From Trachythela sp. YZ-2020 (Eukaryota > Cnidaria > Anthozoa > Malacalcyonacea > Clavulariidae), in the NCBI GenBank assembly GCA_016169945.1, contig JADLSH010000147.1, positions 1 through 64,000 of the forward strand: a DNA stretch of 64,000 nucleotides, given 5' to 3'. Position 1 is the stretch's first letter. The number at the start of each line of letters is the position of its first letter. The position numbers were made by a program, and so were the translations under genes. The notes beneath the pieces were generated by a model that did not search any database, was not told the DNA's origin, and was given only the letters and a program-made list of their open reading frames with translations. Below are positions 10,301 to 45,859 of this stretch, one piece after another.

Positions 10301-11474
10301 TGTTTTCATGCATTTGAAATTTTTGATCAGATGCAAAGGGGGGACCAAAGGATTTGAAATCAGGCCCTTTGGTCCCCCCTATGGTTTTTGATTTTTTCAA
10401 ACTTGGTTCAAATAACCCCAAACGATTGTAAAAAAGCCCCAACCTGTTTCTTTCATAAAAACAATGACTTTCAGGAGGAAAGAACATGTTTTCATGCATT
10501 TGAAATTTTTGATCAGATGCAAAGGGGGGACCAAAGGATTTGAAATCAGGCCCTTTGGTCCCCCCTATGGTTTTTGATTTTTTCAAACTTGGTTCAAATA
10601 ACCCAAAACGATTGTAAAAAAGCCCCAACCTGTTTCTTTCATAAAAACAATGACTTTCAGGAGGAAAGAACATGTTTTCATGCATTTGAAATTTTTGATC
10701 AGATGCAAAGGGGGGACCAAAGGATTTGAAATCAGGCCCTTTGGTCCCCCCTATGGTTTTTGATTTTTTTCAAACTTGGTTCAAATAATCCCCAAACGAT
10801 TGTAAAAAAGCCCCAACCTGTTTCTTTCATAAAAACAATGACTTTCAGGAGGAAAGAACATGTTTTCATGCATTTGAAATTTTTGATCAGATGCAAAGGG
10901 GGGACCAAAGGATTTGAAATCAGGCCCTTTGGTCCCCCCTATGGTTTTTGATTTTTTTTCAAACTTGGTTCAAATAACCCCCAAACGATTGTAAAAAAGC
11001 CCAACCTGTTTCTTTCATAAAAACAATGACTTTCAGGAGGAAAGAACATGTTTTCATGCATTTGAAATTTTTGATCAGATGCAAAGGGGGGACCAAAGGA
11101 TTTGAAATCAGGCCCTTTGGTCCCCCCTATGGTTTTTGATTTTTTCAAAATTGGTTCAAATAACCCCAAACGATTGTAAAAAAGCCCCAACCTGTTTCTT
11201 TCATAAAAACAATGACTTTCAGGAGGAAAGAACATGTTTTCATGCATTTGAAATTTTTGATCAGATGCAAAGGGGGGACCAAAGGATTTGAAATCAGGCC
11301 CTTTGGTCCCCCCTATGGTTTTTGACTTTTTTCAAACTTGGTTCAAATAACCCCAAACGATTGTAAAAAAGCCCCAACCTGTTTCTTTCATAAAAACAAT
11401 GACTTTCAGGAGGAAAGAACATGTTTTCATGCATTTGAAATTTTTGATCAGATGCAAAGGGGGGACCAAAGGAT

Positions 11475-12230
11475 TTGAAATCAGGCCCTTTGGTCCCCCC
11501 TATGGTTTTTGATTTTTTTTCAAACTTGGTTCAAATAACCCCAAACGATTGTAAAAAAGCCCCAACCTGTTTCTTTCATAAAAACAATGACTTTCAGGAG
11601 GAAAGAACATGTTTTCATGCATTTGAAATTTTTGATCAGATGCAAAGGGGGGACCAAAGGATTTGAAATCAGGCCCTTTGGTCCCCCCTATGGTTTTTGA
11701 TTTTTTTTCAAACTTGGTTCAAATAACCCCAAACGATTGTAAAAAAGCCCCAACCTGTTTCTTTCATAAAAACAATGACTTTCAGGAGGAAAGAACATGT
11801 TTTCATGCATTTGAAATTTTTGATCAGATGCAAAGGGGGGACCAAAGGATTTGAAATCAGGCCCTTTGGTCCCCCCTATGGTTTTTGATTTTTTTTCAAA
11901 CTTGGTTCAAATAACCCCAAACGATTGTAAAAAAGCCCCAACCTGTTTCTTTCATAAAAACAATGACTTTCAGGAGGAAAGAACATGTTTTCATGCATTT
12001 GAAATTTTTGATCAGATGCAAAGGGGGGACCAAAGGATTTGAAATCAGGCCCTTTGGTCCCCCCTATGGTTTTTGATTTTTTTTCAAACTTGGTTCAAAT
12101 AACCCCAAACGATTGTAAAAAAGCCCCAACCTGTTTCTTTCATAAAAACAATGACTTTCAGGAGGAAAGAACATGTTTTCATGCATTTGAAATTTTTGAT
12201 CAGATGCAAAGGGGGGACCAAAGGATTTGA
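11475..12230. repeat. Homogenised 188-bp monomer block within the satellite
   Basis: Four consecutive monomers spaced exactly 188 bp apart share the same variant state (six C after GGT, eight T, four C before AAACG). They are followed directly by a block of a different, 184-bp type. This points to local duplication or gene conversion of neighbouring units. Confidence 0.85.
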
Positions 12231-12800
12231 AATCAGGCCCTTTGGTCCCCTATGGTTTTTGATTTTTTCAAACTTGGTTCAAATAACCCCAAACGATTGT
12301 AAAAAAGCCCCAACCTGTTTCTTTCATAAAAACAATGACTTTCAGGAGGAAAGAACATGTTTTCATGCATTTGAAATTTTTGATCAGATGCAAAGGGGGG
12401 ACCAAAGGATTTGAAATCAGGCCCTTTGGTCCCCTATGGTTTTTGATTTTTTCAAACTTGGTTCAAATAACCCCAAACGATTGTAAAAAAGCCCCAACCT
12501 GTTTCTTTCATAAAAACAATGACTTTCAGGAGGAAAGAACATGTTTTCATGCATTTGAAATTTTTGATCAGATGCAAAGGGGGGACCAAAGGATTTGAAA
12601 TCAGGCCCTTTGGTCCCCTATGGTTTTTGATTTTTTCAAACTTGGTTCAAATAACCCCAAACGATTGTAAAAAAGCCCCAACCTGTTTCTTTCATAAAAA
12701 CAATGACTTTCAGGAGGAAAGAACATGTTTTCATGCATTTGAAATTTTTGATCAGATGCAAAGGGGGGACCAAAGGATTTGAAATCAGGCCCTTTGGTCC
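12231..12800. repeat. Homogenised 184-bp monomer block within the satellite
   Basis: Consecutive monomers spaced exactly 184 bp apart share the short variant state (four C after GGT, six T, four C before AAACG). The switch from the 188-bp type is abrupt. Confidence 0.85.
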
Positions 12801-15800
12801 CCTATGGTTTTTGATTTTTTCAAACTTGGTTCAAATAACCCTCAAACGATTGTAAAAAAGCCCCAACCTGTTTCTTTCATAAAAACAATGACTTTCAGGA
12901 GGAAAGAACATGTTTTCATGCATTTGAAATTTTTGATCAGATGCAAAGGGGGGACCAAAGGATTTGAAATCAGGCCCTTTGGTCCCCCCTATGGTTTTTG
13001 ATTTTTTTTCAAACTTGGTTCAAATAACCCCAAACGATTGTAAAAAAGCCCCAACCTGTTTCTTTCATAAAAACAATGACTTTCAGGAGGAAAGAACATG
13101 TTTTCATGCATTTGAAATTTTTGATCAGATGCAAAGGGGGGACCAAAGGATTTGAAATCAGGCCCTTTGGTCCGCCCTATGGTTTTTGATTTTTTCAAAC
13201 TTGGTTCAAATAACCCCAAACGATTGTAAAAAAGCCCCAACCTGTTTCTTTCATAAAAACAATGACTTTCAGGAGGAAAGAACATGTTTTCATGCATTTG
13301 AAATTTTTGATCAGATGCAAAGGGGGGACCAAAGGATTTGAAATCAGGCCCTTTGGTCCCCTATGGTTTTTGATTTTTTCAAACTTGGTTCAAATAACCC
13401 CAAACGATTGTAAAAAAGCCCCAACCTGTTTCTTTCATAAAAACAATGACTTTCAGGAGGAAAGAACATGTTTTCATGCATTTGAAATTTTTGATCAGAT
13501 GCAAAGGGGGGACCAAAGGATTTGAAATCAGGCCCTTTGGTCCGCCCTATGGTTTTTGATTTTTTCAAACTTGGTTCAAATAACCCCAAACGATTGTAAA
13601 AAAGCCCCAACCTGTTTCTTTCATAAAAACAATGACTTTCAGGAGGAAAGAACATGTTTTCATGCATTTGAAATTTTTGATCAGATGCAAAGGGGGGACC
13701 AAAGGATTTGAAATCAGGCCCTTTGGTCCCCTATGGTTTTTGATTTTTTCAAACTTGGTTCAAATAACCCCAAACGATTGTAAAAAAGCCCCAACCTGTT
13801 TCTTTCATAAAAACAATGACTTTCAGGAGGAAAGAACATGTTTTCATGCATTTGAAATTTTTGATCAGATGCAAAGGGGGGACCAAAGGATTTGAAATCA
13901 GGCCCTTTGGTCCCCTATGGTTTTTGATTTTTTCAAACTTGGTTCAAATAACCCCAAACGATTGTAAAAAAGCCCCAACCTGTTTCTTTCATAAAAACAA
14001 TGACTTTCAGGAGGAAAGAACATGTTTTCATGCATTTGAAATTTTTGATCAGATGCAAAGGGGGGACCAAAGGATTTGAAATCAGGCCCTTTGGTCCCCG
14101 TATGGTTTATGATTTTTTCAAACTTGGTTCAAATAACCCCAAACGATTGTAAAAAAGCCCCAACCTGTTTCTTTCATAAAAACAATGACTTTCAGGAGGA
14201 AAGAACATGTTTTCATGCATTTGAAATTTTTGATCAGATGCAAAGGGGGGACCAAAGGATTTGAAATCAGGCCCTTTGGTCCCCTATGGTTTTTGATTTT
14301 TTCAAACTTGGTTCAAATAACCCCAAACGATTGTAAAAAAGCCCCAACCTGTTTCTTTCATAAAAACAATGACTTTCAGGAGGAAAGAACATGTTTTCAT
14401 GCATTTGAAATTTTTGATCAGATGCAAAGGGGGGACCAAAGGATTTGAAATCAGGCCCTTTGGTCCCCGTATGGTTTATGATTTTTTCAAAACTTGTTTA
14501 AAATAACCCCAAACGATTGTAAAAAAGCCCCAACCTGTTTCTTTCATAAAAACAATGACTTTCAGGAGGAAAGAACATGTTTTCATGCATTTGAAATTTT
14601 TGATCAGATGCAAAGGGGGGACCAAAGGATTTGAAATCAGGCCCTTTGGTCCGCCCTATGGTTTTTGATTTTTTCAAACTTGGTTCAAATAACCCCAAAC
14701 GATTGTAAAAAAGCCCCAACCTGTTTCTTTCATAAAAACAATGACTTTCAGGAGGAAAGAACATGTTTTCATGCATTTGAAATTTTTGATCAGATGCAAA
14801 GGGGGGACCAAAGGATTTGAAATCAGGCCCTTTGGTCCGCCCTATGGTTTTTGATTTTTTTTCAAACTTGGTTCAAATAACCCCAAACGATTGTAAAAAA
14901 GCCCCAACCTGTTTCTTTCATAAAAACAATGACTTTCAGGAGGAAAGAACATGTTTTCATGCATTTGAAATTTTTGATCAGATGCAAAGGGGGGACCAAA
15001 GGATTTGAAATCAGGCCCTTTGGTCCCCTATGGTTTTTGATTTTTTTTCATACTTGGTTCAAATAACCCCAAACGATTGTAAAAAAGCCCCAACCTGTTT
15101 CTTTCATAAAAACAATGACTTTCAGGAGGAAAGAACATGTTTTCATGCATTTGAAATTTTTGATCAGATGCAAAGGGGGGACCAAAGGATTTGAAATCAG
15201 GCCCTTTGGTCCTCCCCCCTATGGTTTTTGATTTTTTTTCAAACTTGGTTCAAATAACCCCCAAACGATTGTAAAAAAGCCCCAACCTGTTTCTTTCATA
15301 AAAACAATGACTTTCAGGAGGAAAGAACATGTTTTCATGCATTTGAAATTTTTGATCAGATGCAAAGGGGGGACCAAAGGATTTGAAATCAGGCCCTTTG
15401 GTCCTCCCCCCTATGGTTTTTGATTTTTTTTCAAACTTGGTTCAAATAACCCCCAAACGATTGTAAAAAAGCCCCAACCTGTTTCTTTCATAAAAACAAT
15501 GACTTTCAGGAGGAAAGAACATGTTTTCATGCATTTGAAATTTTTGATCAGATGCAAAGGGGGGACCAAAGGATTTGAAATCAGGCCCTTTGGTCCCCTA
15601 TGGTTTTTGATTTTTTCAAACTTGGTTCAAATAACCCCAAACGATTGTAAAAAAGCCCCAACCTGTTTCTTTCATAAAAACAATGACTTTCAGGAGGAAA
15701 GAACATGTTTTCATGCATTTGAAATTTTTGATCAGATGCAAAGGGGGGACCAAAGGATTTGAAATCAGGCCCTTTGGTCCGCCCTATGGTTTTTGATTTT

Positions 15801-18800
15801 GTTTCAAACTTGGTTCAAATAACCCCAAACGATTGTAAAAAAGCCCCAACCTGTTTCTTTCATAAAAACAATGACTTTCAGGAGGAAAGAACATGTTTTC
15901 ATGCATTTGAAATTTTTGATCAGATGCAAAGGGGGGACCAAAGGATTTGAAATCAGGCCCTTTGGTCCGCCCTATGGTTTTTGATTTTTTCAAACTTGGT
16001 TCAAATAACCCCAAACGATTGTAAAAAAGCCCCAACCTGTTTCTTTCATAAAAACAATGACTTTCAGGAGGAAAGAACATGTTTTCATGCATTTGAAATT
16101 TTTGATCAGATGCAAAGGGGGGACCAAAGGATTTGAAATCAGGCCCTTTGGTCCCCCCTATGGTTTTTGATTTTTTTTCAAACTTGGTTCAAATAACCCC
16201 AAACGATTGTAAAAAAGCCCCAACCTGTTTCTTTCATAAAAACAATGACTTTCAGGAGGAAAGAACATGTTTTCATGCATTTGAAATTTTTGATCAGATG
16301 CAAAGGGGGGACCAAAGGATTTGAAATCAGGCCCTTTGGTCCCCCCTATGGTTTTTGATTTTTTTCAAACTTGGTTCAAATAACCCCAAACGATTGTAAA
16401 AAAGCCCCAACCTGTTTCTTTCATAAAAACAATGACTTTCAGGAGGAAAGAACATGTTTTCATGCATTTGAAATTTTTGATCAGATGCAAAGGGGGGACC
16501 AAAGGATTTGAAATCAGGCCCTTTGGTCCCCCCTATGGTTTTTGATTTTTTTTCAAACTTGGTTCAAATAACCCCCAAACGATTGTAAAAAAGCCCCAAC
16601 CTGTTTCTTTCATAAAAACAATGACTTTCAGGAGGAAAGAACATGTTTTCATGCATTTGAAATTTTTGATCAGATGCAAAGGGGGGACCAAAGGATTTGA
16701 AATCAGGCCCTTTGGTCCCCCCTATGGTTTTTGATTTTTTTTTAAAACTTGGTTCAAATAACCCCAAACGATTGTAAAAAAGCCCCAACCTGTTTCTTTC
16801 ATAAAAACAATGACTTTCAGGAGGAAAGAACATGTTTTCATGCATTTGAAATTTTTGATCAGATGCAAAGGGGGGACCAAAGGATTTGAAATCAGGCCCT
16901 TTGGTCCCCCCTATGGTTTTTGATTTTTTGAAACTTGGTTCAAATAACCCCAAACGATTGTAAAAAAGCCCCAACCTGTTTCTTTCATAAAAACAATGAC
17001 TTTCAGGAGGAAAGAACATGTTTTCATGCATTTGAAATTTTTGATCAGATGCAAAGGGGGGACCAAAGGATTTGAAATCAGGCCCTTTGGTCCCCCCTAT
17101 GGTTTTTTTTTTTCAAACTTGGTTCAAATAACCCCCAAACGATTGTAAAAAAGCCCCAACCTGTTTCTTTCATAAAAACAATGACTTTCAGGAGGAAAGA
17201 ACATGTTTTCATGCATTTGAAATTTTTGATCAGATGCAAAGGGGGGACCAAAGGATTTGAAATCAGGCCCTTTGGTCTATCCCTATGGTTTTTGATTTTT
17301 TCAAAATTGGTTCAAATAACCCCAAACGATTGTAAAAAAGCCCCAACCTGTTTCTTTCATAAAAACAATGACTTTCAGGAGGAAAGAACATGTTTTCATG
17401 CATTTGAAATTTTTGATCAGATGCAAAGGGGGGACCAAAGGATTTGAAATCAGGCCCTTTGGTCCCCCCTATGGTTTTTGATTTTTTCAAACTTGGTTCA
17501 AATACCCCCAAACGATTGTAAAAAAGCCCCAACCTGTTTCTTTCATAAAAACAATGACTTTCAGGAGGAAAGAACATGTTTTCATGCATTTGAAATTTTT
17601 GATCAGATGCAAAGGGGGGACCAAAGGATTTGAAATCAGGCCCTTTGGTCCCCTATGGTTTTTGATTTTTTCAAACTTGGTTCAAATAACCCCAAACGAT
17701 TGTAAAAAAGCCCCAACCTGTTTCTTTCATAAAAACAATGACTTTCAGGAGGAAAGAACATGTTTTCATGCATTTGAAATTTTTGATCAGATGCAAAGGG
17801 GGGACCAAAGGATTTGAAATCAGGCCCTTTGGTCCCCCCTATGGTTTTTGATTTTTTCAAACTTGGTTCAAATAACCCCAAACGATTGTAAAAAAGCCCC
17901 AACCTGTTTCTTTCATAAAAACAATGACTTTCAGGAGGAAAGAACATGTTTTCATGCATTTGAAATTTTTGATCAGATGCAAAGGGGGGACCAAAGGATT
18001 TGAAATCAGGCCCTTTGGTCCCACTATGATTTTTGATTTTTTTCAAACTTGGTTCAAATAACCCCAAACGATTGTAAAAAAGCCCCAACCTGTTTCTTTC
18101 ATAAAAACAATGACTTTCAGGAGGAAAGAACATGTTTTCATGCATTTGAAATTTTTGATCAGATGCAAAGGGGGGACCAAAGGATTTGAAATCAGGCCCT
18201 TTGGTCCCCTATTGTTTTTGATTTTTTCAAACTTGGTTCAAATAACCCCCAAACGATTGTAAAAAAGCCCCAACCTGTTTCTTTCATAAAAACAATGACT
18301 TTCAGGAGGAAAGAACATGTTTTCATGCATTTGAAATTTTTGATCAGATGCAAAGGGGGGACCAAAGGATTTGAAATCAGGCCCTTTGGTCCCCCCTATG
18401 GTTTTTGATTTTTTTCAAACTTGGTTCAAATAACCACAAACGATTGTAAAAAAGCCCCAACCTGTTTCTTTCATAAAAACAATGACTTTCAGGAGGAAAG
18501 AACATGTTTTCATGCATTTGAAATTTTGATCAGATGCAAAGGGGGGACCAAAGGATTTGAAATCAGGCCCTTTGGTCCCCCCTATGGTTTTTGATTTTTT
18601 TTCAAACTTGGTTCAAATAACCCCCAAACGATTGTAAAAGCCCCAACCTGTTTCTTTCATAAAAACAATGACTTTCAGGAGGAAAGAACATGTTTTCATG
18701 CATTTGAAATTTTTGATCAGATGCAAAGGGGGGACCAAAGGATTTGAAATCAGGCCCTTTGGTCCCCCCTATGGTTTTTGATTTTTTCAAACTTGGTTCA

Positions 18801-20059
18801 AATAACCCGAAACGATTGTAAAAAAGCCCCAACCTGTTTCTTTCATAAAAACAATGACTTTCAGGAGGAAAGAACATGTTTTCATGCATTTGAAATTTTT
18901 GATCAGATGCAAAGCGGGGACCAAAGGATTTGAAATCAGGCCCTTTGGTCCCCTATGGTTTTTGATTTTTTCAAACTTGGTTCAAATAAACCCCAAACGA
19001 TTGTAAAAAAGCCCCAACCTGTTTCTTTCATAAAAACAATGACTTTCAGGAGGAAAGAACATGTTTTCATGCATTTGAAATTTTTGATCAGATGCAAAGG
19101 GGGGACCAAAGGATTTGAAATCAGGCCCTTTGGTCCCCCCTATGGTTTTTGATTTGTTTTCAAACTTGGTTCAAATAACCCCAAACGATTGTAAAAAAGC
19201 CCCAACCTGTTTCTTTCATAAAAACAATGACTTTCAGGAGGAAAGAACATGTTTTCATGCATTTGAAATTTTTGATCAGATGCAAAGGGGGGACCAAAGG
19301 ATTTGAAATCAGGCCCTTTGGTCCCCTATGGTTTTTGATTTTTTCAAACTTGGTTCAAATAACCCCAAACGATTGTAAAAAAGCCCCAACCTGTTTCTTT
19401 CATAAAAACAATGACTTTCAGGAGGAAAGAACATGTTTTCATGCATTTGAAATTTTTGATCAGATGCAAAGGGGGGACCAAAGGATTTGAAATCAGGCCC
19501 TTTGGTCCCCCCTATGGTTTTTGATTTTTTCAAACTTGGTTCAAATAACCGCAAACGATTGTAAAAAAGCCCCAACCTGTTTCTTTCATAAAAACAATGA
19601 CTTTCAGGAGGAAAGAACATGTTTTCATGCATTTGAAATTTTTGATCAGATGCAAAGGGGGGACCAAAGGATTTGAAATCAGGCCCTTTGGTCCCCCCTA
19701 TGGTTTTTGATTTTTTTTCAAACTTGGTTCAAATAACCCCCAAACGATTGTAAAAAAGCCCCAACCTGTTTCTTTCATAAAAACAATGACTTTCAGGAGG
19801 AAAGAACATGTTTTCATGCATTTGAAATTTTTGATCAGATGCAAAGGGGGGACCAAAGGATTTGAAATCAGGCCCTTTGGTCCCCCCTATGGTTTTTGAT
19901 TTTTTTTCAAACTTGGTTCAAATAACCCCCAAACGATTGGAAAATTGCTCCAACCTGTTGCTTTTCTAATTTCCTACGCGATATAGCATGGTCCGAAACC
20001 CATAACTTGGATTCATACACGGATCCTAACCGAATGTGGTATTCCATGTGTTAATTTAT

Positions 20060-25031: not shown

Positions 25032-25036
25032 ATTTG

Positions 25037-25167
25037 TGTAATATAAAGACATTTACCCAAGATGGTTGACAATAACAAGACAAGAAGATATTAATTATTC
25101 AAACATAAATAGGCTACAAATCTGCTCCCCCGGGTGGGCAGAGTATGCTAATGCTAATTATGTCACA
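25037..25167. repeat. Left LTR of gypsy element
   Basis: A 131-bp sequence begins TGTAATATAAAG and ends TTATGTCACA, with TG...CA termini. It differs from the right LTR only at 25,114 (C versus T) and 25,124 (G versus A). It contains a TATA-like CATAAATAGG on the plus strand and a tandem ATGCTAATGCTAAT near the end. Confidence 0.95.
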
Positions 25168-25180
25168 CCTTCCCCTTTTT
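25168..25180 (-). promoter_or_regulatory. Polypurine tract (minus strand)
   Basis: The plus strand reads CCTTCCCCTTTTT directly after the left LTR. On the minus strand this is AAAAAGGGGAAGG directly before the LTR's TG, the expected form and place of a polypurine tract for an element transcribed on the minus strand. No purine tract precedes the right LTR on the plus strand. Confidence 0.85.
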
Positions 25181-25316
25181 AATAATATCCTAAATTCTAA
25201 ATAGATTAAAATTATCAAGTTGCTAAGACAAAATGTTAAATGTTCTAGATAAAGCAAAGTTTAGATATGAAACGTAGAAAATAAAGTTCATTAAACTTAG
25301 GAAATTAACTGAAATA

Positions 25317-25559
25317 ATGTCAAATAATGTTTCTAACTTTAATGAACATGAAACCAATTTAGCTAGCTTAAAGAAGCTCACGAAAGACGAAGACCCGAGC
25401 ATTAATGCCATTAACCAGGGACAGTATCGTCAGCGAGACTCTCGAAACCGTCGATACTCAAATAAATGGCACACAGAGCGAGATAAACCGAGTGGGGAAT
25501 TTGACAGCATGTCGAAGGACAGGTGTGGAAGATGTGGTTTCGATAAAAATCACCAGTAA
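25317..25559 (+). pseudogene. Gag C-terminal stub ending at TAA inside the zinc knuckle
   Basis: This 80-codon frame resembles the basic linker and first zinc knuckle of Ty3/gypsy Gag: INAINQGQYRQRDSRNRR and then CGRCGFDKNH. TAA at 25,557-25,559 interrupts the knuckle just before CPAMG. The frame is the same as pol, so one sense codon in place of TAA would fuse them. There is no capsid or matrix region upstream: only about 150 AT-rich bases lie between it and the left LTR. The stop could be a point mutation or a readthrough site, but its place within a metal-binding motif favours mutation. Confidence 0.8.
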
Positions 25560-25568
25560 TGCCCAGCA

Positions 25569-28500
25569 ATGGGTCAAGAGTGCAGACGATGCCAAAAGAT
25601 GAATCACTATGCAAAGGTTTGCCGAGCCAAACCAGTCAATAACGTACAGCTACAGAAAAAAGTGGACACTAGTTCCGAGGACAGTGATGATTACTCATCC
25701 TTCTTTGTCTATGCAATTGAGTCAACCATTCCATCTCAGGATGAACAATTTCATGAAACTGTTGATGTAGAGAATACCAAAGTTAAATTTCAGTTGGACA
25801 GTGGTGCAAAAGCAAATGTTATGTCCTTCAAGACCTACAACAACCTTAAGTGCACACCTCTCCGCCCACTGAAGAAAACAAATACCGTTTTGATTTCCTT
25901 TTCCAAGCACAAACTAAAACCATGCGGAGAAGTTGTGTTAAAAGTAAAGTACAAAGACCACTTAGAAGATGTCAAATTTTATGTTGTGGAATCTGAAGTT
26001 GAATCTGTCCTTAGTGGAAACACTTGTGTCAAGCTTGGTTTGCTGAAGAGAGTTTACCAAGTTGTAAGTCAAGAAGCATCATTAAAGAAAGTTGAATTGG
26101 ATGATTACCCTGAGTTGTTCAAAGGATTAGGATGTTTACCTGGTGATTATCATATCGAGTTAAACGAAGGTGCCACCCCTGTTGTCCATGCTCCAAGAAA
26201 AGTACCAATTCCGCAGAGAGAAAAGGTCATCCAAGAACTGAGAAGAATGGAAAGCCTTGGTGTGATCGTGCGACAGGAAGAAGCGACAGATTGGGTCAAT
26301 TCGATGGTTGTGGTTCAAAAGCCTAATGGTGCAGTGAGACTGTGTATTGATCCGAGGGATTTGAATACTGCCATGAAAAGGTCCCACCATCCGATGAAGA
26401 CTGTGGATGAAGTCGCCAGTCGTCTTGAAGGTGCTAATATATTTAGCATATTGGATGCGAAGAGTGGTTTTTGGCAACTGAAGCTGGATGAAGAGTCTTC
26501 ACTCCTTTGCACATTCAACACACCAATAGGACGGTATAGATTTACAAGGTTACCTTTTGGAGTAAAATGTGCCCCAGAGATCTTCCAAAGAACCATGGAT
26601 AGAATGGTTGAAGATTTAGACGGTGTAGAGGTTATTATGGATGATGTAGTTGTCGCCGGGAATGAAACAACGCATGATGAACGATTGACTAAATTCTTGG
26701 AGCGAGCATCGACACAAGGATTAAAGCTTAATCGAGAAAAGTGCAAGATTCGCCAAACAGAAGTGCCTTATGTAGGTCATCTCCTCACAGCAGGGGGTTT
26801 GAAGATAGATCCTCGGAAAGTTGAAGCAATTCGAGATATGCCAAAGCCAAATAACAAAGAAGACGTCAAACGATTTCTTGGATTTGTGCAATTCCTGAGT
26901 CGGTATCTTCCTGGATTATCCAATGTTGATGCACCTTTGAGAGAGCTTGAGAAATCCGACGTACTGTTTCACTGGGATCAACCACAGCAAACAAGCTTTG
27001 AGAAGATCAAGGAACTTGTTTCACAAGCACCAGTCCTACAGTATTATGATGTCACCAAACCGGTAACAATCCAGTGTGATGCAAGTGGCAAGGGATTAGG
27101 AGCAGTGTTACTACAAGAGGGAAAGCCTGTATGTTATGCTTCTCGAGCTCTTACGGACATCGAGAGCAGATATGCCGCCATCGAAGCCGAAATGCTTGCA
27201 GTAGTCTTCGCTTGTCGTAAGTTCCATCAGTACATATATGGCAGAAGTGTGGTTGTGGAATCAGATCATAAACCACTACAAGCAATCAGCAGCAAACCGT
27301 TGTCGCAGGTTCCGTTGCGACTTCAGAAGATGATTCTTAACGTGCGTGGATACGATGCGGAGATACGTTATGTTCCTGGCTGTAAACAAGTATTGGCTGA
27401 CACTCTGAGTCGAGCATCATTGCCAAATACCGAACAGAAAATATACGAAGAATTCCAGGAAGTTCATATGGTTCTTGCAGTCTCTGATGAGCGATATGAA
27501 GAGTTCCAAAAAGAGACCAAAACCGATCCAGAGTTACCAGCAGTTATTTCCTTAGTGACGAGTGGTTGGCCGGACACAAAGCAACAAGTTCCCGTCGAAG
27601 CCAGACCTTACTGGACATTCAGAGATGAAGTTGTGACAACAGATGGGTTGCTCTTCAAAGGAACACGCCTAATCGTTCCAAGAGTTATGAGACCTGATAA
27701 GCTTCGTCAAATCCATAAGAGTCATTTGGGGATAGTCAAATGCCGACAAAGAGCCAGAGATGTATTATTTTGGCCTGGCATGTCAGTACACATTGAAGAA
27801 ATGGTTGCCAATTGTAGCGTGTGTGCAGATTATGCGAAGAAGCAGCCTTCAGAGCCCTTGAAACCAACCGTTCCTCCAAAGCTTCCGTGGGAAAAGATAG
27901 GAACTGATCTTTTTGAATTTCGCCGAGAACATTTTTTGGTTTCCGTGTGTTACCGCAGTAAGTTTCCAGAAGTCACCAAGATGGAATCGACAAGAAGTAG
28001 CGCTGTCGTAGACGAGCTCAAACGCCAATTCGGTGTCCATGGAATACCAGCCGAGGTCATTTCTGACAATGGACCCCAATACAGTAGTCGTGAGTTCCAA
28101 GAATTTGCAAAAGAGTATGGTTTTAAACATACCACAAGCTCACCACATTTCCCAAGAGCAAATGGAGAAGCAGAAAGAGCCATCCAAACTATTAAGAATT
28201 TGTGGCGAAAGAACAATGATAAGTACTTGGCCCTACTTCACTACCGAACAACGCCGTTACCTAACGTCGAACTGTCTCCCGCCCAATTACTTATGGGACG
28301 TCGACTGCGAAACGACCTGCCTGTGATGGAAAGCTTACTTCAACCAACCAACAACAGCCCACAACGTATTTCCAAATATTTAATGAAGACTAAAGAAGAC
28401 CAGAAGAAGTACCACGACAAGCATGCAAATCAGGAGCTGAAAGAACTTCAGCCTGGAGCTAAAGTCCGATTAGAACCGTGGACGTATTCCAGAGAGTGGA

Positions 28501-28625
28501 AACCAGCGACGGTAGTGAGGCGTCACCATACGCCAAGATCATATGTAGTTCAAACCGATGATGGAAGAAAGTATCGTCGCAATAGACAGCATAATTATGC
28601 AAGTTTGCCCAGCTCTAGGATCTGA
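25569..28625 (+). CDS. Ty3/gypsy Pol polyprotein (protease, RT, RNase H, integrase)
   Basis: An uninterrupted frame of 1,018 codons. Order: second gag zinc knuckle CRRCQKMNHYAKVC (residues 5-18), protease LDSGA (D77), RT with D296 and IMDD (356-359), RNase H with D504, E541 and D566, integrase zinc domain H-H-C-C (about 714-753), integrase core D780, D833 and E869 (spacing DD35E), then a basic C-terminal domain ending near SRI. It resembles the K02A2.6-like gypsy group common in cnidarians. The ATG at 25,569 is the first in frame, but the frame is open from 25,560, so translation may normally continue from gag. The RT motif has I-M-D-D where Y-x-D-D is usual. All catalytic residues appear intact. 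It lies antisense to the element's own priming signals. Confidence 0.95.
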   Translation: MGQECRRCQKMNHYAKVCRAKPVNNVQLQKKVDTSSEDSDDYSSFFVYAIESTIPSQDEQFHETVDVENTKVKFQLDSGAKANVMSFKTYNNLKCTPLRPLKKTNTVLISFSKHKLKPCGEVVLKVKYKDHLEDVKFYVVESEVESVLSGNTCVKLGLLKRVYQVVSQEASLKKVELDDYPELFKGLGCLPGDYHIELNEGATPVVHAPRKVPIPQREKVIQELRRMESLGVIVRQEEATDWVNSMVVVQKPNGAVRLCIDPRDLNTAMKRSHHPMKTVDEVASRLEGANIFSILDAKSGFWQLKLDEESSLLCTFNTPIGRYRFTRLPFGVKCAPEIFQRTMDRMVEDLDGVEVIMDDVVVAGNETTHDERLTKFLERASTQGLKLNREKCKIRQTEVPYVGHLLTAGGLKIDPRKVEAIRDMPKPNNKEDVKRFLGFVQFLSRYLPGLSNVDAPLRELEKSDVLFHWDQPQQTSFEKIKELVSQAPVLQYYDVTKPVTIQCDASGKGLGAVLLQEGKPVCYASRALTDIESRYAAIEAEMLAVVFACRKFHQYIYGRSVVVESDHKPLQAISSKPLSQVPLRLQKMILNVRGYDAEIRYVPGCKQVLADTLSRASLPNTEQKIYEEFQEVHMVLAVSDERYEEFQKETKTDPELPAVISLVTSGWPDTKQQVPVEARPYWTFRDEVVTTDGLLFKGTRLIVPRVMRPDKLRQIHKSHLGIVKCRQRARDVLFWPGMSVHIEEMVANCSVCADYAKKQPSEPLKPTVPPKLPWEKIGTDLFEFRREHFLVSVCYRSKFPEVTKMESTRSSAVVDELKRQFGVHGIPAEVISDNGPQYSSREFQEFAKEYGFKHTTSSPHFPRANGEAERAIQTIKNLWRKNNDKYLALLHYRTTPLPNVELSPAQLLMGRRLRNDLPVMESLLQPTNNSPQRISKYLMKTKEDQKKYHDKHANQELKELQPGAKVRLEPWTYSREWKPATVVRRHHTPRSYVVQTDDGRKYRRNRQHNYASLPSSRI

Positions 28626-28670
28626 CAGCGACGACCAAACCGTAGCTCCATCAGTTGACAAACAAATGCC

Positions 28671-28688
28671 ATCCCACTCCTGACACCC
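28671..28688 (-). promoter_or_regulatory. Primer binding site complementary to tRNA-Leu (minus strand)
   Basis: The plus strand reads ATCCCACTCCTGACACCC directly before the right LTR. The first 17 bases equal the 3' end of metazoan tRNA-Leu as I recall it (TCCCACTCCTGACA plus the start of CCA); only the last base differs (C for A). On the minus strand it is a primer binding site directly downstream of an LTR. No tRNA 3'-end complement is seen after the left LTR on the plus strand. Confidence 0.85.
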
Positions 28689-28819
28689 TGTAATATAAAG
28701 ACATTTACCCAAGATGGTTGACAATAACAAGACAAGAAGATATTAATTATTCAAACATAAATAGGTTACAAATCTACTCCCCCGGGTGGGCAGAGTATGC
28801 TAATGCTAATTATGTCACA
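28689..28819. repeat. Right LTR of gypsy element
   Basis: This 131-bp copy matches the left LTR except for T at 28,766 and A at 28,776. It is followed directly by the second ATTTG target duplication. Confidence 0.95.
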
Positions 28820-28824
28820 ATTTG

Positions 28825-30300
28825 AATCTCGCACTGTGTGAGGCAATAGCGTTCGACATGTCGTGGGAGCTAAGGCACTGCCTTGTCGCACACCTTGCAG
28901 TACAGGAAATTCTTCCGATGCTTTACCGTCTGGGAGGACACGGCTGGTAAGTACACCATACCAATTTCGTAGAAGGCGCCAAGTCTTACCTTGAATACCC
29001 ATGTTGTATATCTTATACAGAAGGCCGGGAATCCAGACAGCATCGAAGGCTTTGGAGGAATCTAAAAAGCAAGAATAGACTTTGATGCCGCGTTCACCGT
29101 TCTGGTATACGGCTTCCTGTGGTGACATGCTTGTATCTATACTGCTTGTTCATTTTTTATATGCAAACTGTCGGCGAAGAAGGCATCGGTCGTTAAAAAT
29201 ATATCCAATTATGTTCAGGAGTGTACAATAGCTATCTTTATCATACTTGTTCTTCTTATTTGTTGTTAAAAGTGATGCTATATTTCCAACTGCGAAGGAT
29301 TTCGGAACAGTCTCCGTATTATTACAAATGGCATTTAATAATGTCGTTAAAGTCTCCAGAAGTACAACACCTCTAAATTTGACATGCTCAGATGTCATAT
29401 CAGGAAAAGCAGCTTTCTTATCCGGCAAATTTGTACAAATTTTTCCAACTTCATGTTTATAGTGAGGGGCTCATCCAACATATCTGCAATTGCTTCCTAA
29501 CTTGTTTTGTCGTATGTTCTTAAAAGCTGTTCAATATGAGCAGCAAATCGTCATCCAACTTTGGATTGTTTTGGTGGGTGGAAAGTTCGGAGTAATGTAT
29601 TTTCCGAATTTCACGTAGCTCATCTACATCGTCAATTAGCTTTCGGTCAATCTATAAGGAGTTAGAGTGTTTTCCTGCACCTTTTCCTTCCAGACGGAAC
29701 TAACTTCTACTTAATTCCGTCAAAGCGTTTCTCCAGTAGTTCATAATTGCGTTATTTTCCTTTGTAAACCCTACGCCTTAGTTCTCGTGGGAATGTTCAC
29801 TTTGTTGTTTATAGTTTCTAGAATATATGTTTTCAGGGTGACGTGGTCGTCTATGCAAAATCCAGATTTCGCTAAAGTGCCGATTATCTTGATGGAACGT
29901 TCCATGCCGGTCTTCCAAAATTATTTCAGTTAAATTTATGTTTCGTCTTGGGAATGGCTTGATCCGCAGATAACTTCAAAATGGATATCACGTCTTTCAG
30001 AATACTTTCTAAAGCATTCGTGCCCTGTGCCAATCTTTCTCCTGCATTGAGTCCATTGAGACCTGCTGAGACTTTATTTTAATAAATAACCTTAATTTCG
30101 GAGTTATGGATGCTTTTCCACATAGTATGTGGTTTTAAATTCAATTTTGTAAGAGATCTAACTTGTTTTGTTTCCAAGCGACAGAAGATTGGATGGTGAT
30201 AAGAGAGAATTATACAACGGTCATCTGCGACATAACATATTTGAATAGATCCAGATATTCCTCGCGAACAAGTACTGTATGTGGTCAACAGTTGACTTAG
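28825..30300 (-). pseudogene. LINE relic, endonuclease end and RT N-terminal half
   Basis: Reading on the minus strand from 30,300: SGSIQICYVADDRCIILS and HHPIFCRLE match the end of the APE endonuclease. After a decayed linker, 29,428-29,150 gives KAAFPDMTSEHVKF, TVPKSFAVGNIASL and LLNIIGYIF (RT start). Then 29,128-28,825 gives VYSCFLDSSKAFDAVW (RT block A with the catalytic D) and LQGVRQGSALAP. The RT continues at 25,031-24,690 beyond the gypsy insertion. Several frameshifts and stops show it is dead. Confidence 0.75.
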
Positions 30301-34785: not shown

Positions 34786-37700
34786 GCACTATACATTCAT
34801 AGCAAGTTCGGCAAAGTTGCTGCCACACAAGTTATGTTTTTCTCCAAGATAATTGAAAAGTTCATCTATTTCTGCAAGCTTGCATACGAGAACTAGGCCA
34901 CCTTCATTGCCATGCTGATGACTGTCAAACACAGCTAGGTTTCCATTATCAATAAGTATGGCCACTGAATTAGCTGGTGGGATAATCCAAACGCCAGCAT
35001 GCCTTTTCTCTCCTTGAAGCATTTTAACAAATGTTTCTTTAATGTCATCCACATTGAAGAATCCCAAATCGTGCAAAATTTGTAAGTTCAGATCCTTAAT
35101 CTTGCCGACCACATCTCGAACTTCCAAATTTGGTTGGTTATGAGGTAGATTCAAACCTTGGTACAATAAATTCCCATTCAAAATTGTTTGTTTGTAGCTG
35201 CTTGTCATAGCTCGGATATCACTTTTATTAGATGGGATGGCCAATGTTTTTAACAGAAACTTTCGGCACCACATTGAAGCAATAATTGTGCAAGCATTAC
35301 TTGCCAGTGGTCTTCCACCTATTTGGGTTTGGCAGATACTTGTGGGGAACAGCCATTCCATGATTCCATTTGTGTTTTGCTGTGATTGTTGAGGTGGTTC
35401 CTGCTGCACTACATGGTTAACTAAATTTTGAACTTCCCGAAGAGGTTTCCGCTTTTTGTGTCTGTTATGCTGAGTGGAATCAGAATTAGCTGGTGGTGCT
35501 TGCTCTCGTTGCAGATGGTGATTAGAAGGCTTTGGTGGTGGGTGTAAATTTGCAATTTTGTCACTCAGTTTGTTTATTGTTTCATCTATACTTTGTAGAT
35601 CAACAGTTGGCAGAGTTTCCATATTGGCTGGTTCATCATCAGGATTATCATCAAGCTGGGCCTCCTTGGCTGGATTTGGATGTAAAATGGCATCTTTGGC
35701 AACTTTACCAAGCTCCTCCACTTTACTTTGAAGAAAGGCATGACAAATTGGGCAGAAAGTAGTGCCATTGAGACATTTAACATGGAATGAATGCCAACAC
35801 CCTTGAAAAATTCTCCATGGTTCATCGTCGTCGTTAATGGTGCACGAGTGGAGGTCACATATGCAATCTTGGTTTGGTTCCTGCTTTGCGCTGAAGCCAA
35901 GAGGAAGAGCTGTGTATTTAACTTCTGCTTGTCCAAAAATGTGTGGTAAGCGGACATATTTTGTTTTCCTTCTTATAAAACTAGAAGCACAGCCAATGTT
36001 ATCATTTATCACAATGAAAATGTTTGTCAAAAATTCTGCACATCGGACCTTTAGGTACTTAAGTTGCTGCTGTGAAAAACTGAAGTGTTTTGGAGGGGTG
36101 AAATTTAATCGAAAGTTAGCTTGTTTGGTCTTGGATTGAAATATACCCTTTGCCCTTTCCTGAAGTTTAGCGGCAGTGTCGGAAGGCTGAGTTTGGGCTC
36201 GGATGATGCTGTGTGTATTCTCCACTGGATATTCATCAAAAATTGTGGGCCACTTGGAAAATTGTTCATAAAGCTCATTGTACTTGCTTTTCCAGTGGGA
36301 AGTGTTTGATAACCACACAAGGGGAGCTTTATTGTAATGACGGCGCTTTAGGCACAGGAACATTACCCATATCCGGATCATTGAATTGTAGTATTCTTTA
36401 AAATTGTTTCTTTTGAAAGTGATTGTATAAATTGTCAAAACCAGTGGGATATAGTTTTCTAACAAATTGAGTAGTGTACCATATTGAGTGTCCTTGGAAT
36501 TTTGAAATTTGGTCATCACTTGATCTCGTATTAATGTCCAACTACCATACACTGTTTCTAGTATGAGATTTATTCTCCAGGGTTTGGGTGATTTTGTCAG
36601 CTTACTGTTTGGGAACAAATAACTATAAACTTGGTTGAAGAACGGTCTAAATGTATGAAAAATGTCTTCTCTACTATTTAGGGAAATGTGCAATGGACCC
36701 ATAGTGGGAATGAGAGATGTTATGGCAGGGATTTGACCGCTCCTGGAGTTGCAATTTTCCACAGTATTGGAGGATGACTGATGCTCCTGTTGAGATGCAC
36801 ATGATTGCTGATACTGGGTGAGAGATTCGTATATCAGTTGTCTACAATAAAATTGGCATGGCCAGTCACCAGGCTGAATTATGACAAACTTCTTCAAATA
36901 AGCTGCTAAACCTGATGCCACAATTGTATCATATGCTTTGGAAAAACCATCCTTTGATTTCAACTGTAACTCGACAAAGTCAATTAGATGCAAATCATCC
37001 ATTGTTCTCATCATTCGAACTCCAGACTCGTCACCATAGCCATGTTCTTCTAGAATGTGTCGTTCAAGATCCGGTGTAAAAAACAGCGTGGTCAACCAAT
37101 TTGGCATAGTTGAGGCGTAGCTATTGCTTAACAGTGCAGACTGTTCAGGGGAGGTTATAGCATCTACACAAGCTGGTATGTCAACACCATCTGGGCAATG
37201 GATTCTGGAAATATTTGATGGTACCTTTATTGCTCTCAATTGCTTGAATGCCTTTACTACAATTGTACACATGCTCATTGGATTGCAAGTTCTCAGAATG
37301 GCTGGTCTTCGATAGGTGTGAATTTTGGTGAAGTCATCGATTATAAGTACCAAAACCCATTCATTTTGGATTGCTTGGTTGAAAAAATTTTTCAGACTTT
37401 CCTCATGATTTCGCGACAGTTGGCTGCGGATTATGTCAGATGTTTTACGGCTGCATGTATGTCCCATCCGATATTGTGTATCTATGCCTTCTTGAGTCAT
37501 CCTATTGGAGTTCAGATAGAGTGCATTATCTACTTGCATAACATTACACATCTGGCTGCGGCAGTAGCACATAGTATAAATTATCGACACTGTTCTTACT
37601 CGGTTGAGATCCTGACGCCTGTGGGAATGACGGTCCTCTGAAACTGCTTGCAAGATGTGTGCAAATATATTTGGAGCACCTGCCTGACGACAAAAATCGA

Positions 37701-42998: not shown

Positions 42999-44471
42999 TT
43001 AGGAACAATAGCTTAAGGTGAAAGAGCGACACTTAGAACAGAAGGGTTTCCAAGTGCGCATTCTGTTTACATCGAAAGTTGAGTGTAGTGGAGAAGAGTA
43101 ATAAACAGTTAGCCTGTGTTTGAAGGAGGAAACGGATGAACTATTACGAATGGTGGGAGAGAGATTGTTCCAGAGAAGGACAATTCGGTTGAAAAAAGAG
43201 TTTCTATAGAGAGACGTCCTGCAATGGTTAACTTGAAGCAAGTTGTCCTTGCTTGAACGGGTGCGAGACGTGCTGTGAGAAGAAAAAGTGACGAAAGAGG
43301 AGATGTCTAGGTCGAAGAGACCTTGTTTACATTTAAAAAAGAAGACGAGATCCTTTAGTTCAAGCCAGTAGGATATCGGAAGTAAATTAAGCTTCTTAAG
43401 ACGTTCAGGATATGACAACTCATAATCCTGAAGGATGAATTTGCTAGCACGTCTTTGAACACCCTCGAGGATCGCAAGATCGCGTGACGATCCTTGAGGT
43501 GCCCAGATCTCACTACCATAAGACAGATGAGATCGGACGAGAGCAAGATAAAGATTATCAGTCATTTGGGTACAATTCCTGTTAAGGAAACCAAGCATAC
43601 GATTGGCTTTTGCAGTGCAGCTGGCTATGTGTGGGGACCACTTTAGGTCGTTGCTAATAACCAAACCCAAGTCTACTTGGCTAGATATGCTCTTGACTGG
43701 TTCGTTGTTAAGAAAGTAGGAATGAGTTGGAGGGTTGCGTTTTCGGGATATCCTGAGCAAAAGCGTCTTTGAGATATTAAATTTCAATTGCCAGGACAGC
43801 GACCAGTTGGACATAGCGTCCAGGTCAAGCTGGAGGAGATCTCGATCATCTGGTGATTGTATAGCACGATAACATTTGCTGTCATCAGCAAAAAGTGCAA
43901 CAGTACTATTCTTGGTTACCTCTGGAAGGTCGTTCACATAAAGTATGAATAGGAGAGGACCTATTACACTACCTTGTGGCACACCAGAGGTAACACTAAG
44001 AAAGGAAAAGGAAACTCCTTCAATGACAACACACTGTTTACGATCACGAAGGTAATCGGCAAACCAGTTAAGAAGTGGACCAGAGATTCCAAACGATTTA
44101 AGTTTAAACAAGAGTTTGCTATGGGACAGAGAGTCAAACGCTTTAGCAAAGTCAAGATAAACCATGTCAATTTCCTTACCAGAGTCAAGAGTATGACCAA
44201 GGTCGTGAAGCACATTCAAAAGTTGAGTAACACATGACTTATGGCGACGAAAGCCGTGTTGAAGATCGTGCAAAGAGTTCATAACAAAAGAATAAACCTG
44301 ACTGAAAATTAGACGTTCAAGAACTGTGGAGACTTGAGAGAGTAATGAAATTGGTCTGTAGTTAGTGGCCTCATGAGCGTCGCCTTTCTTGGGTATGGGA
44401 ACAACATTAGCAGATTTCCATTCAGAAGGGAAAACACCCTGCTGAAGAGATAGCTCAAAGAGAGCAGTCAA
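42999..44471 (-). CDS. LINE reverse transcriptase (jockey/CR1 type)
   Basis: An open frame of 490 codons covers most of the RT: GDAHEATNYRPISLLS, MVYLDFAKAFDSLSHSKL (block A with the catalytic D), SGVPQGSVIGPLLF (block B), ALFADDSKCY (active-site FADD) and the thumb with LGLVISNDLKWSPH. It ends with FFNRIVLLWNNLSPTIR and a C-terminal FCSKCRSFTLSYC cysteine motif typical of this group. The frame itself is intact, but the upstream frame changes mean the full ORF2 is broken. Confidence 0.92.
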   Translation of the reverse strand: MTALFELSLQQGVFPSEWKSANVVPIPKKGDAHEATNYRPISLLSQVSTVLERLIFSQVYSFVMNSLHDLQHGFRRHKSCVTQLLNVLHDLGHTLDSGKEIDMVYLDFAKAFDSLSHSKLLFKLKSFGISGPLLNWFADYLRDRKQCVVIEGVSFSFLSVTSGVPQGSVIGPLLFILYVNDLPEVTKNSTVALFADDSKCYRAIQSPDDRDLLQLDLDAMSNWSLSWQLKFNISKTLLLRISRKRNPPTHSYFLNNEPVKSISSQVDLGLVISNDLKWSPHIASCTAKANRMLGFLNRNCTQMTDNLYLALVRSHLSYGSEIWAPQGSSRDLAILEGVQRRASKFILQDYELSYPERLKKLNLLPISYWLELKDLVFFFKCKQGLFDLDISSFVTFSSHSTSRTRSSKDNLLQVNHCRTSLYRNSFFNRIVLLWNNLSPTIRNSSSVSSFKHRLTVYYSSPLHSTFDVNRMRTWKPFCSKCRSFTLSYCS

Positions 44472-45155
44472 AGACGGGGGCGATTACTTCAGAACATCGC
44501 TTTAGAATATAAGCTGGTATACCGTCAGGACCAGTAGCCTTAGAGGGTGACAAATTGTCGGATTCAGATATAGTTAATGAGTCAAGAGAGTTAGATGTTG
44601 AGTTAGGAGAGATGAGAGGTGAAGAACTAGTGTCGGAATCGGAGATAAAGACTGACGCAAAATATTGGTTAAAGCCATCCGCTTTTTCCTCCGCAGAAAA
44701 AAGTTTCTGACCATTCAATTTAATCACGTCAGGGATAGAGGATTTTGAGGATTTACTCTTAAAGAATCTCCAAAATGATTTAGGATCATTGAAAACATTT
44801 TCGGACAGTCCAGAGAGATATTCTCTCTTCTTGGAATTAATCCAACACTTGACGTGTTGCCGAGTTCTGCGGAATTTCTCCCAAAGTTGAGGTGAGTTCT
44901 TAGCCTTAGCCTTTCTCCTTAGTGACTCTTTCATTTTGATGGCGTGGAGTAAGTCCTTGGTGATGTACGGAGGGGTGAATGAACGCTTGAGCTTTGTTTT
45001 AGGAATGAAATAGTCTACAGCGGCAAGGAAAGCGTTTTTCCACTTTGACCAGGCAAGATTAACGTCGTGACTTTCGTTGAGGACTATATCTACTAGTGGA
45101 GTGTTCCTAAGACAGTTAACGAGGCCAACGAAATCACCTTTAGAGTAATCATATA
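44455..45155 (-). pseudogene. LINE linker between endonuclease and RT
   Basis: Translation includes MKESLRRKAKAKNSPQLW, KKREYLSGLSENVFNDPKSF and ending SPSKATGPDGIPAYILKRCS, which is the K-A-x-G-P-D-G-I-P block that begins LINE RT. The upstream part (45,155-44,935) reads in another frame (SKWKNAFLAAVDYFIPK). A frameshift near 44,460 separates it from the main RT frame. Confidence 0.75.
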
Positions 45156-45824
45156 CTATACGTTCAGAGGATTGTTTAGGTTGATGATGAGTTTTAAGTT
45201 GAAAAATATTGCTTTGTGATTAGAGTGCAGAGAGATGGAGTCGTCATAAATAACTTCGAAGTTGTTGGTCAAATGTTCGTTTGTAGTTAAAACCAGGTCG
45301 ATAAGATTGTTACCGCGGGTAGGAGAGTTGATCAATTGTAGGTAACTAAACTCAGAGACAATGTCAATGAAACCAATTTCAGAACTTAAGGTAGAGAAAC
45401 CTGAACCATTAGACCATTGGATGTTAGGGTAGTTAAAATCACCAATTAGAACAACATCTCTGAATTGTGAATCTTGTACAAATTTTAGAAATCGAGATAG
45501 ATCATGGATAAAATCAATGGTGGAGTCAGGTGGACGGTAACAGACAGCAAATAGTACTTTACTGGACGAGGAGTTAATGACAACAGATGCAAGTTCTAAT
45601 GTGTCGGAAATGAAACCAGAAGGTTCAGTTTTGACTGAATCTCTCACGGCAAGTAGAACACCACCTCCCCGTTTACCAGTTTGACGATCTCTACGAATTA
45701 TGTTGTACGCAACCGGTAAGATTTCATCATCACGCACATGACTAGAGAGCCAAGTCTCCACCAAAGCAATCACATCTATACTGTTGCCATAGACAACGTC
45801 ATGTAGACGGGATAGCTTATTCAC
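45156..45824 (-). pseudogene. LINE APE-type endonuclease domain
   Basis: The 222-codon frame shows the endonuclease motifs in order: IDVIALVETWLSSHVRDDE (catalytic E), KRGGGVLLAVRDSV, VCYRPPDS, VVLIGDFNYPNIQW (catalytic D and N), NLIDLVLTT and LHSNHKAIFF. The last motif is usually S-D-H; here D is replaced by N, which may weaken catalysis. It lies directly upstream of the RT region of the same element. Confidence 0.88.
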
Positions 45825-45859
45825 GACGCAATTAGTTCCAGAGTTATGATAATTTGCCT

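What the first reader, a model, noticed from the sequence alone, without database searches (positions are those of the whole stretch)
25037..28819. Young gypsy element whose gag-pol is antisense to its own PBS and PPT
Seen directly: LTRs 129/131 identical, a perfect 5-bp target duplication, and intact pol on the plus strand. The purine tract (AAAAAGGGGAAGG next to the left LTR) and the tRNA-Leu primer site (next to the right LTR) are on the minus strand. In conventional LTR elements both lie on the coding strand. The RNA that can be reverse transcribed would therefore be antisense to pol. Inference: either an internal inversion was mobilised in trans by a helper, or this is a true ambisense lineage in which one LTR transcript makes protein and the other serves as genome. 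The near-identical LTRs show it transposed recently in this form.
Basis: partly seen in the sequence, partly recalled or inferred. Interest (0 to 1): 0.88.

Follow-up and report, generated by a model that had tools for sequence, protein, structure and literature searches.

The report
Retrotransposon flipped by misprimed strong-stop DNA
One copy of a gypsy-type retrotransposon carries its pol gene backwards between two intact ends, and at the join 17 of 18 bases match the end of the host's leucine tRNA, so the flip likely happened by a priming error while this copy was being reverse-transcribed; it is not a new kind of two-way element.

Summary
The anatomy is real. LTRs 25037-25167 and 28689-28819 match at 129/131, ATTTG flanks both, and PBS and PPT lie on the minus strand, opposite to a 1018-codon pol. 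Three of three empty paralogues show one ATTTG. No ambisense lineage: in 9 of 9 other loci found that keep LTR and pol, pol is sense to the LTR, and the PBS-side junction occurs exactly once in the 578-Mb assembly. Gag is truncated and stopped.

Five of five leader-bearing relatives match the tRNA at no more than 11 nt, then read ATCC. In the window the 11-nt PBS is joined to GTGGGAT, reverse complement of ATCCCAC at the pol 3' end. Together they spell the last 18 nt of host tRNA-Leu (17/18). Of 38,511 possible blunt joins one gives this: the one seen. I infer that plus-strand strong-stop DNA carrying an 18-nt tRNA copy mis-annealed by its last 7 nt to sense-strand pol, primed 3.3 kb of antisense synthesis, switched back upstream of the PPT and integrated normally. 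The main rival is inversion in situ. The class is known (Ty3/gypsy); the route is the new part.

The parts
25032..25036 (.). left target-site duplication ATTTG
   Evidence: three of three empty LINE paralogues carry a single ATTTG here
25037..25167 (-). LTR, 3' LTR in the sense direction of PBS/PPT
   Evidence: 129/131 to the right LTR; of 13 relative LTRs compared, 12 are closer to the right LTR and 1 is equally close, so both differences look like changes in this one
25168..25180 (-). polypurine tract AAAAAGGGGAAGG
   Evidence: AAAAAGGGGAAGA precedes the 3' LTR of relatives C30, C385, C360, C189, C374, and AAAAAGGGAAAGA that of C72
25168..25341 (-). 3' UTR segment that keeps the LTR orientation
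   Evidence: blastn to relatives L010, L011, L012, L015, L016, L017 next to their 3' LTR
25338..25349 (+). second junction (J2): 3' UTR / 5-nt bridge ATGAA (25342-25346) / gag. The 12-mer TTTAATGAACAT matches the sense 3' UTR of relative C30
   Evidence: the 12-mer is in 2 of 2000 composition shuffles, its first 10 nt in 40 of 2000. Suggestive only
25347..28677 (+). inverted segment: end of gag plus pol, antisense to PBS and PPT
25557..25559 (+). in-frame TAA in the gag zinc-knuckle region
25569..28625 (+). pol ORF, 1018 codons: RT, RNase H, H2C2, integrase core
   Evidence: the only full-length copy of this pol found in the assembly
28671..28677 (+). ATCCCAC of the pol 3' end, complementary to nt 12-18 of the tRNA copy; priming site in the model
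   Evidence: in the five relatives where the site was found (C30, C385, C360, C189, C374) it is followed by GAGAATG; single occurrence in the window element and in the C30 element
28671..28688 (-). chimeric PBS (J1), GGGTGTCAGGA + GTGGGAT, 17 of 18 nt identical to the complement of the tRNA-Leu 3' end
28689..28819 (-). LTR, 5' LTR in the sense direction of PBS/PPT
28820..28824 (.). right target-site duplication ATTTG

Best explanation
This is a single Ty3/gypsy-type LTR retrotransposon copy whose pol segment lies inverted between correctly oriented LTRs, PBS and PPT, likely because its plus-strand strong-stop DNA, carrying an 18-nt copy of the tRNA-Leu primer, mis-annealed by its last 7 nt to the pol 3' end during reverse transcription. 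Inferred steps: (1) minus-strand DNA was primed by tRNA-Leu on the family's roughly 11-nt PBS; (2) plus-strand strong-stop DNA was made from the PPT and copied 18 nt of the attached tRNA, up to the presumed m1A58; (3) its tail, ending GTGGGAT, did not match the PBS beyond nt 11 and paired with the one ATCCCAC, in the pol 3' end of a sense strand (perhaps the co-packaged RNA); (4) extension copied pol and part of gag backwards for 3.3 kb; (5) a further switch, perhaps via a short bridge, returned synthesis to minus-strand DNA in the 3' UTR, through PPT and second LTR; (6) integrase inserted the product with a 5-bp duplication. Shown directly: the anatomy, the chimeric 17/18-nt join, sense orientation in the other copies found, uniqueness of the PBS-side join and the clean empty site. 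The product looks like a dead end.
For: LTR/pol orientation is canonical in 9 of 9 other LTR+pol loci. Five of five leader-bearing copies (C30, C82, C89, C385, C360) read TGGTGTCAGGATCC or TGGAGTCAGCATCC, none GTGGGAT. The window reads GGGTGTCAGGA+GTGGGAT+GGCATTTG, where GTGGGATGGCATTTG is antisense pol 3' end. The host has 45 exact GTTCGAATCCCACTCCTGACA sites against 0 in the reversed-pattern control; the one examined is a tRNA gene (RF00005, 50.3 bits) with CAA and an intron in the anticodon region by my reading. ATCCCAC occurs once in the window element and once in the C30 element. Of 38,511 blunt joins one gives tRNA identity through nt 18, the observed one. The junction is exact only here in 578 Mb. 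Empty site 3 of 3 with one ATTTG. Retroviral plus-strand strong-stop DNA stops after 18 tRNA nt at m1A58 (PMC13191261, passages). In Ty3/Ty1 the first such product copies 12 tRNA nt, is not used for transfer, and the PBS is not inherited from tRNA (PMC5371799, section 6), which fits relatives lacking the tail.
Against: PBS position 1 is G, not T (17/18, not 18/18). A 7-nt partner for the tail is not rare in itself: 394 of 2000 composition shuffles hold one on a given strand; the weight lies on the join being exactly there. J2 needs at least one more switch, and its bridge is weak evidence (10-mer in 40 of 2000 shuffles). m1A58 in this host, the nature of the sense template and strand-switching by this enzyme were not tested. 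Ty3 copies only 12 tRNA nt, so 18 nt is retrovirus-like rather than Ty3-like. Only five leader-bearing copies were found and two look like one locus, so a parent with a full 18-nt PBS cannot be excluded; other families in this genome have one (L044, L055). Relatives also carry deletions and, in C189, a 60-nt inverted pol piece, so rearrangement by other routes does occur.
Confidence: 0.72

Rival explanations
1. In-situ inversion: a normally oriented copy inserted here and its interior was later inverted by DNA breakage and end joining or by replication template switching, with loss of about 0.6 kb of leader/gag and 0.19 kb of 3' sequence.
For: TSD and LTR identity do not distinguish this from inversion before integration. 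J1 and J2 have short or no homology to family sequence. If the parent had a full 18-nt PBS, the 7-bp inverted repeat would be ready-made. Relatives are much rearranged.
Against: With the PBS seen in five of five leader-bearing relatives, a blunt join would have to recreate nt 12-18 of the tRNA by chance: 1 of 38,511 choices. Two losses at the two breakpoints are also needed.
Confidence: 0.2
2. An inverted, non-autonomous element that was itself transcribed and mobilised in trans by a helper.
For: PBS, PPT and both LTR ends are sense to each other, so an LTR transcript could in principle be reverse-transcribed; young LTRs.
Against: Exact junction only once in the genome; no second copy of this arrangement among the 13 other loci.
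Confidence: 0.04
3. A true ambisense lineage in which one LTR transcript makes protein and the other is the genome.
For: Pol is intact here and antisense to PBS/PPT; it is the only full-length pol of the family found in the assembly.
Against: 9 of 9 LTR+pol relatives are sense; gag is truncated and stopped; single copy.
Confidence: 0.02
4. Assembly artefact: the internal segment was placed in the wrong orientation.
For: No raw reads were available here.
Against: A misassembly would not be expected to create a 7-nt extension of the tRNA match, nor a 5-nt bridge; leader/gag and 3' pieces are missing, not just turned.
Confidence: 0.03

Closest known systems
Ty3/gypsy (Metaviridae) LTR retrotransposons, RT-RNase H-integrase order
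   Same: Domain order RT, RNase H, H2C2, rve; best PDB sequence match is Ty3 gag-pol 7q5b, E 7e-74; TG..CA LTRs, 5-bp TSD, tRNA PBS, PPT. The closest listed protein with an organism name is from the coral Oculina patagonica, 72%; two unnamed ones are closer, 85% and 77%.
   Different: Pol and the remnant of gag are inverted relative to PBS and PPT in this one copy; gag truncated.
Ty3/Ty1 plus-strand strong-stop DNA, tRNA-copied and unused (PMC5371799, section 6 read; other passages)
   Same: A tRNA-copied strong-stop DNA is made but the tRNA-copied bases are not inherited in normal progeny; here five of five leader-bearing relatives lack the tail.
   Different: Ty3 copies 12 tRNA nt; the tail inferred here is 18 nt. 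Here the tailed product appears to have been used, on the wrong template.
Retroviral second strand transfer with m1A58 stop (PMC13191261, passages)
   Same: An 18-nt tRNA copy at the end of plus-strand strong-stop DNA.
   Different: In retroviruses the tail matches an 18-nt PBS; here the family PBS matches at most 11 nt and the tail landed in pol.
Inverted or template-switched defective proviruses and 5'-inverted LINE-1 copies (recalled; no paper on them was read)
   Same: Inversion attributed to strand switching during reverse transcription.
   Different: The tRNA-copied tail as the inferred primer is the specific feature here.

Membership tests
Ty3/gypsy LTR retrotransposon | RT, RNase H and integrase in that order | tested here: met
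   Pfam RVT_1 249-404, RT_RNaseH_2 469-563, RT_RNaseH 494-591, H2C2 703-754, rve 777-860
Ty3/gypsy LTR retrotransposon | LTRs TG..CA with short target duplication | tested here: met
Ty3/gypsy LTR retrotransposon | PBS and PPT on the coding strand | tested here: not met
   Not met in the window copy; pol is sense to the LTR in 9 of 9 other LTR+pol loci. The family is a member; this copy is a rearranged one
Ty3/gypsy LTR retrotransposon | gag with intact frame | tested here: not met
   N-terminal part missing, TAA in the zinc-knuckle region
Ty3/gypsy LTR retrotransposon | aspartic protease | tested here: inconclusive
   QLDSGAKANVM is seen in the ORF but no Pfam protease hit; motif assignment recalled
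ambisense LTR element lineage | several copies sharing the antisense arrangement | tested here: not met
trans-mobilised inverted element | at least two copies with the same junctions | tested here: not met
   J1: one exact hit (window); 20 further hits at 2-3 mismatches, the best of them (C346) not of this family, the other 19 not read. J2 was not searched genome-wide
tRNA-tailed plus-strand strong-stop product | 18 nt of host tRNA 3' end at the PBS join, absent from leader-bearing relatives | tested here: met
   17 of 18 nt; the five leader-bearing relatives at most 11 nt
tRNA-tailed plus-strand strong-stop product | stop at modified A58 of the primer tRNA | not testable with these tools
   The match ends at the base before A58 of the tRNA gene (numbering recalled); the modification itself cannot be read from DNA

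The most novel reading that the evidence does not exclude
tRNA-tailed plus-strand strong-stop DNA is a recurrent mutagen of LTR elements with short primer sites: it is made, normally unused, but when its tRNA-copied tail finds a chance complement it flips or deletes the interior and leaves a readable tRNA scar. The window copy is one case, and the older C22 copy (TGGAGCCAGGAGTGGGAT joined to the protease region) may be a second. This would make an otherwise invisible reverse-transcription intermediate countable in genomes.
Probability: 0.33. Interest if true: 0.65.

Novelty: new variant of a known kind. Interest (0 to 1): 0.48.

Why it matters
In Ty1 and Ty3 the tRNA-copied strong-stop DNA is known from yeast experiments and is not inherited. 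This copy appears to preserve such a molecule's end in a natural genome. If right, the length of primer tRNA copied by a gypsy-type element can be read from rearranged copies, and the same scar can be searched for in any genome to measure how often second strand transfer fails. It also explains a baffling antisense element without a new life cycle.

Tried and rejected
Ambisense lineage and trans-mobilisation of an inverted parent: rejected on the orientation of relatives and the single exact J1. Genuine 18-nt family PBS: not seen in five of five leader-bearing copies. The PBS pattern search had 197 matches at up to 3 mismatches against 43 for the reversed control; 100 were listed and 30 cut out and read, among them all 22 with up to 2 mismatches. 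Six of those 30 are of this family by LTR and interior: window, C30, C82, C89 and two places of C22; the other 24 gave no match. C385 and C360 were missed by that pattern and read from their LTRs. Missing host tRNA: ARAGORN in bacterial mode did not call tRNA-Leu in 12 loci, but Rfam found a tRNA in the one examined. Selection for the intact pol: it is the only full-length pol found (the tool calls its counts lower bounds), but with 2 LTR differences this is not evidence of function. C22 as a second event: its PBS join carries GTGGGAT, but 2 of the first 11 nt differ from tRNA-Leu, 6 nt are unexplained and its LTRs differ at 13 sites plus a gap; whether another host tRNA ends in CTGGCTC could not be learned (10 attempts, none answered). 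Literature: searches listed, by titles and starts of abstracts, no paper on an inversion primed by tRNA-tailed strong-stop DNA. They cover only the held open-access library; one search showed 15 of 170 papers, 10 of 15, and papers on HIV internal inversions that one search lists were not opened.
Full report
Observation. The element spans 25037-28819. The two 131-bp LTRs differ at 2 sites, ATTTG flanks both ends, and a 1018-codon pol lies on the plus strand. PPT and PBS are on the minus strand. Pol relatives point to a coral-like animal (closest named protein listed: Oculina patagonica, 72%); this is an inference.

Insertion. Joining the flanks with one ATTTG gives a sequence that aligns right across the join with three other places (C2 and two on C351, 75-77%), each with a single ATTTG. 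The right flank encodes a LINE-type RT fragment. The element therefore most likely entered by ordinary integration.

Relatives. LTR search gave 19 hits at 14 loci including the window. I fetched all 13 others. Nine of them carry pol next to an LTR, and in all nine pol runs sense to the LTR; one, C189, also has a separate 60-nt pol piece turned round. C385 and C360 share flanks and are probably two haplotypes. The four without a pol hit are C274 (solo LTR with AACCG on both sides), C72 (3' end), C110 (LTR plus leader piece, PBS missing) and C271 (fragment). Only the window copy is inverted as a whole, and only from about 25347 to 28677; the 3' UTR and PPT (25168-25341) keep the LTR orientation. 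Pol search found no other full-length pol.

First junction. In the relatives the LTR is followed by TGGTGTCAGGATCC (C30, C82, C89) or TGGAGTCAGCATCC (C385, C360), five of five leader-bearing copies. In the window it is followed by GGGTGTCAGGA, then GTGGGAT, then GGCATTTG. The last two are the reverse complement of the pol 3' end, which in the five relatives where the site was found (C30, C385, C360, C189, C374) reads CCATCCCACGAGAATG. The whole still matches the complement of the last 18 nt of tRNA-Leu at 17 of 18. The host encodes that end: GTTCGAATCCCACTCCTGACA occurs 45 times against 0 for the reversed control, and the example examined is a tRNA gene with, by my reading, CAA and an intron at the anticodon. 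If the join were a random blunt one, 1 of 38,511 combinations of PBS cut and internal position would give it. ATCCCAC occurs once in the window element and once in the C30 element, and the join sits exactly there. Such a 7-mer on one strand is not rare in itself (394 of 2000 shuffles).

Second junction. From 25338 the sequence reads 3' UTR, then ATGAA, then gag. The 12-mer TTTAATGAACAT that covers the bridge occurs in the sense 3' UTR of C30, as a second template switch with short homologies would leave. This is suggestive only: the window's own 3' UTR and that of C189 match 10 nt, and 40 of 2000 shuffles hold that 10-mer.

Mechanism (inferred). In retroviruses plus-strand strong-stop DNA ends with a copy of 18 tRNA nt because m1A58 stops synthesis (PMC13191261, passages). 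In Ty3 and Ty1 a first product copies 12 tRNA nt but is not used, and the PBS is not inherited from tRNA (PMC5371799, section 6). Here a tail of 18 nt whose last 7 do not fit the family PBS would have had one perfect partner in the known parts of the element: ATCCCAC on the sense strand of the pol 3' end. Extension from it would give exactly the strand seen: LTR, 18-nt tRNA copy, antisense pol, antisense gag end. Switching back to minus-strand DNA in the 3' UTR then gives PPT and the second LTR. The loss of about 0.6 kb of leader and gag and of about 0.19 kb after pol follows from where the two switches fell. The same annealed intermediate could also be extended from the pol side; the join does not say which.

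Rivals. An inversion in place after insertion would leave the same TSD and LTRs. It needs either a parent with an 18-nt PBS, not seen in five of five leader-bearing copies, or a chance join. Ambisense biology and trans-mobilisation of an inverted parent are not supported: J1 has one exact hit in the genome; 20 more lie at 2-3 mismatches, of which the one read is not of this family. J2 was not searched genome-wide.

A possible second case. The older C22 copy reads TGGAGCCAGGAGTGGGAT after its LTR and then joins the protease region with gag missing. It too has GTGGGAT where leader-bearing copies have ATCC. But it has 2 mismatches in the first 11 nt and 6 unexplained nt, so I do not count it as shown.

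Verdict. Real, and best explained by a one-off accident of a known replication cycle, with an informative scar. The specific route is not among the papers that my searches listed (titles and abstract starts only).

Noticed in passing
window 7-19964: Satellite array, 186-bp unit, 107 copies, 98% match, about a third of the window.
   Followed up: no
L009 (C22:687000-695500): Older relative (LTR pair 118 matches, 13 mismatches, 1 gap) with a tRNA-like 18-nt PBS joined directly to the protease region and a tandem repeat of LTR end, PBS and part of pol.
   Followed up: partly
L015 2604-2663 (C189:3463103-3463162): A 60-nt pol piece lies inverted beside the rest of pol in this relative, another small rearrangement of a family member.
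   Followed up: no
L022-L033 (C39 about 562900-622600): tRNA-Leu sites lie in a tandem array, often about 1.34 kb apart, with tRNA-Val genes called between them; another array of the same motif is on C112.
   Followed up: no
window 28766-29128 (minus) and flanks: The element sits in a LINE-type element; the ORF encodes an RVT_1 fragment, and paralogues lie on C2 and C351.
   Followed up: partly
window 42999-46405 (minus): Second non-LTR retrotransposon in pieces by eye (endonuclease-like and RT-like ORFs); no family search run.
   Followed up: no
window 34789-37653 (minus): Uninterrupted 954-aa ORF with a cysteine-rich, RING-like stretch by eye, perhaps a transposon protein; no family search run.
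   Followed up: no
L011 / L012 (C385 and C360): Two contigs carry the same element copy with the same flanks, probably uncollapsed haplotypes.
   Followed up: partly
L043, L044, L049, L055: Other sequences of this genome, not of this family, have full or nearly full 18-nt tRNA-Leu primer sites after an LTR-like end.
   Followed up: no
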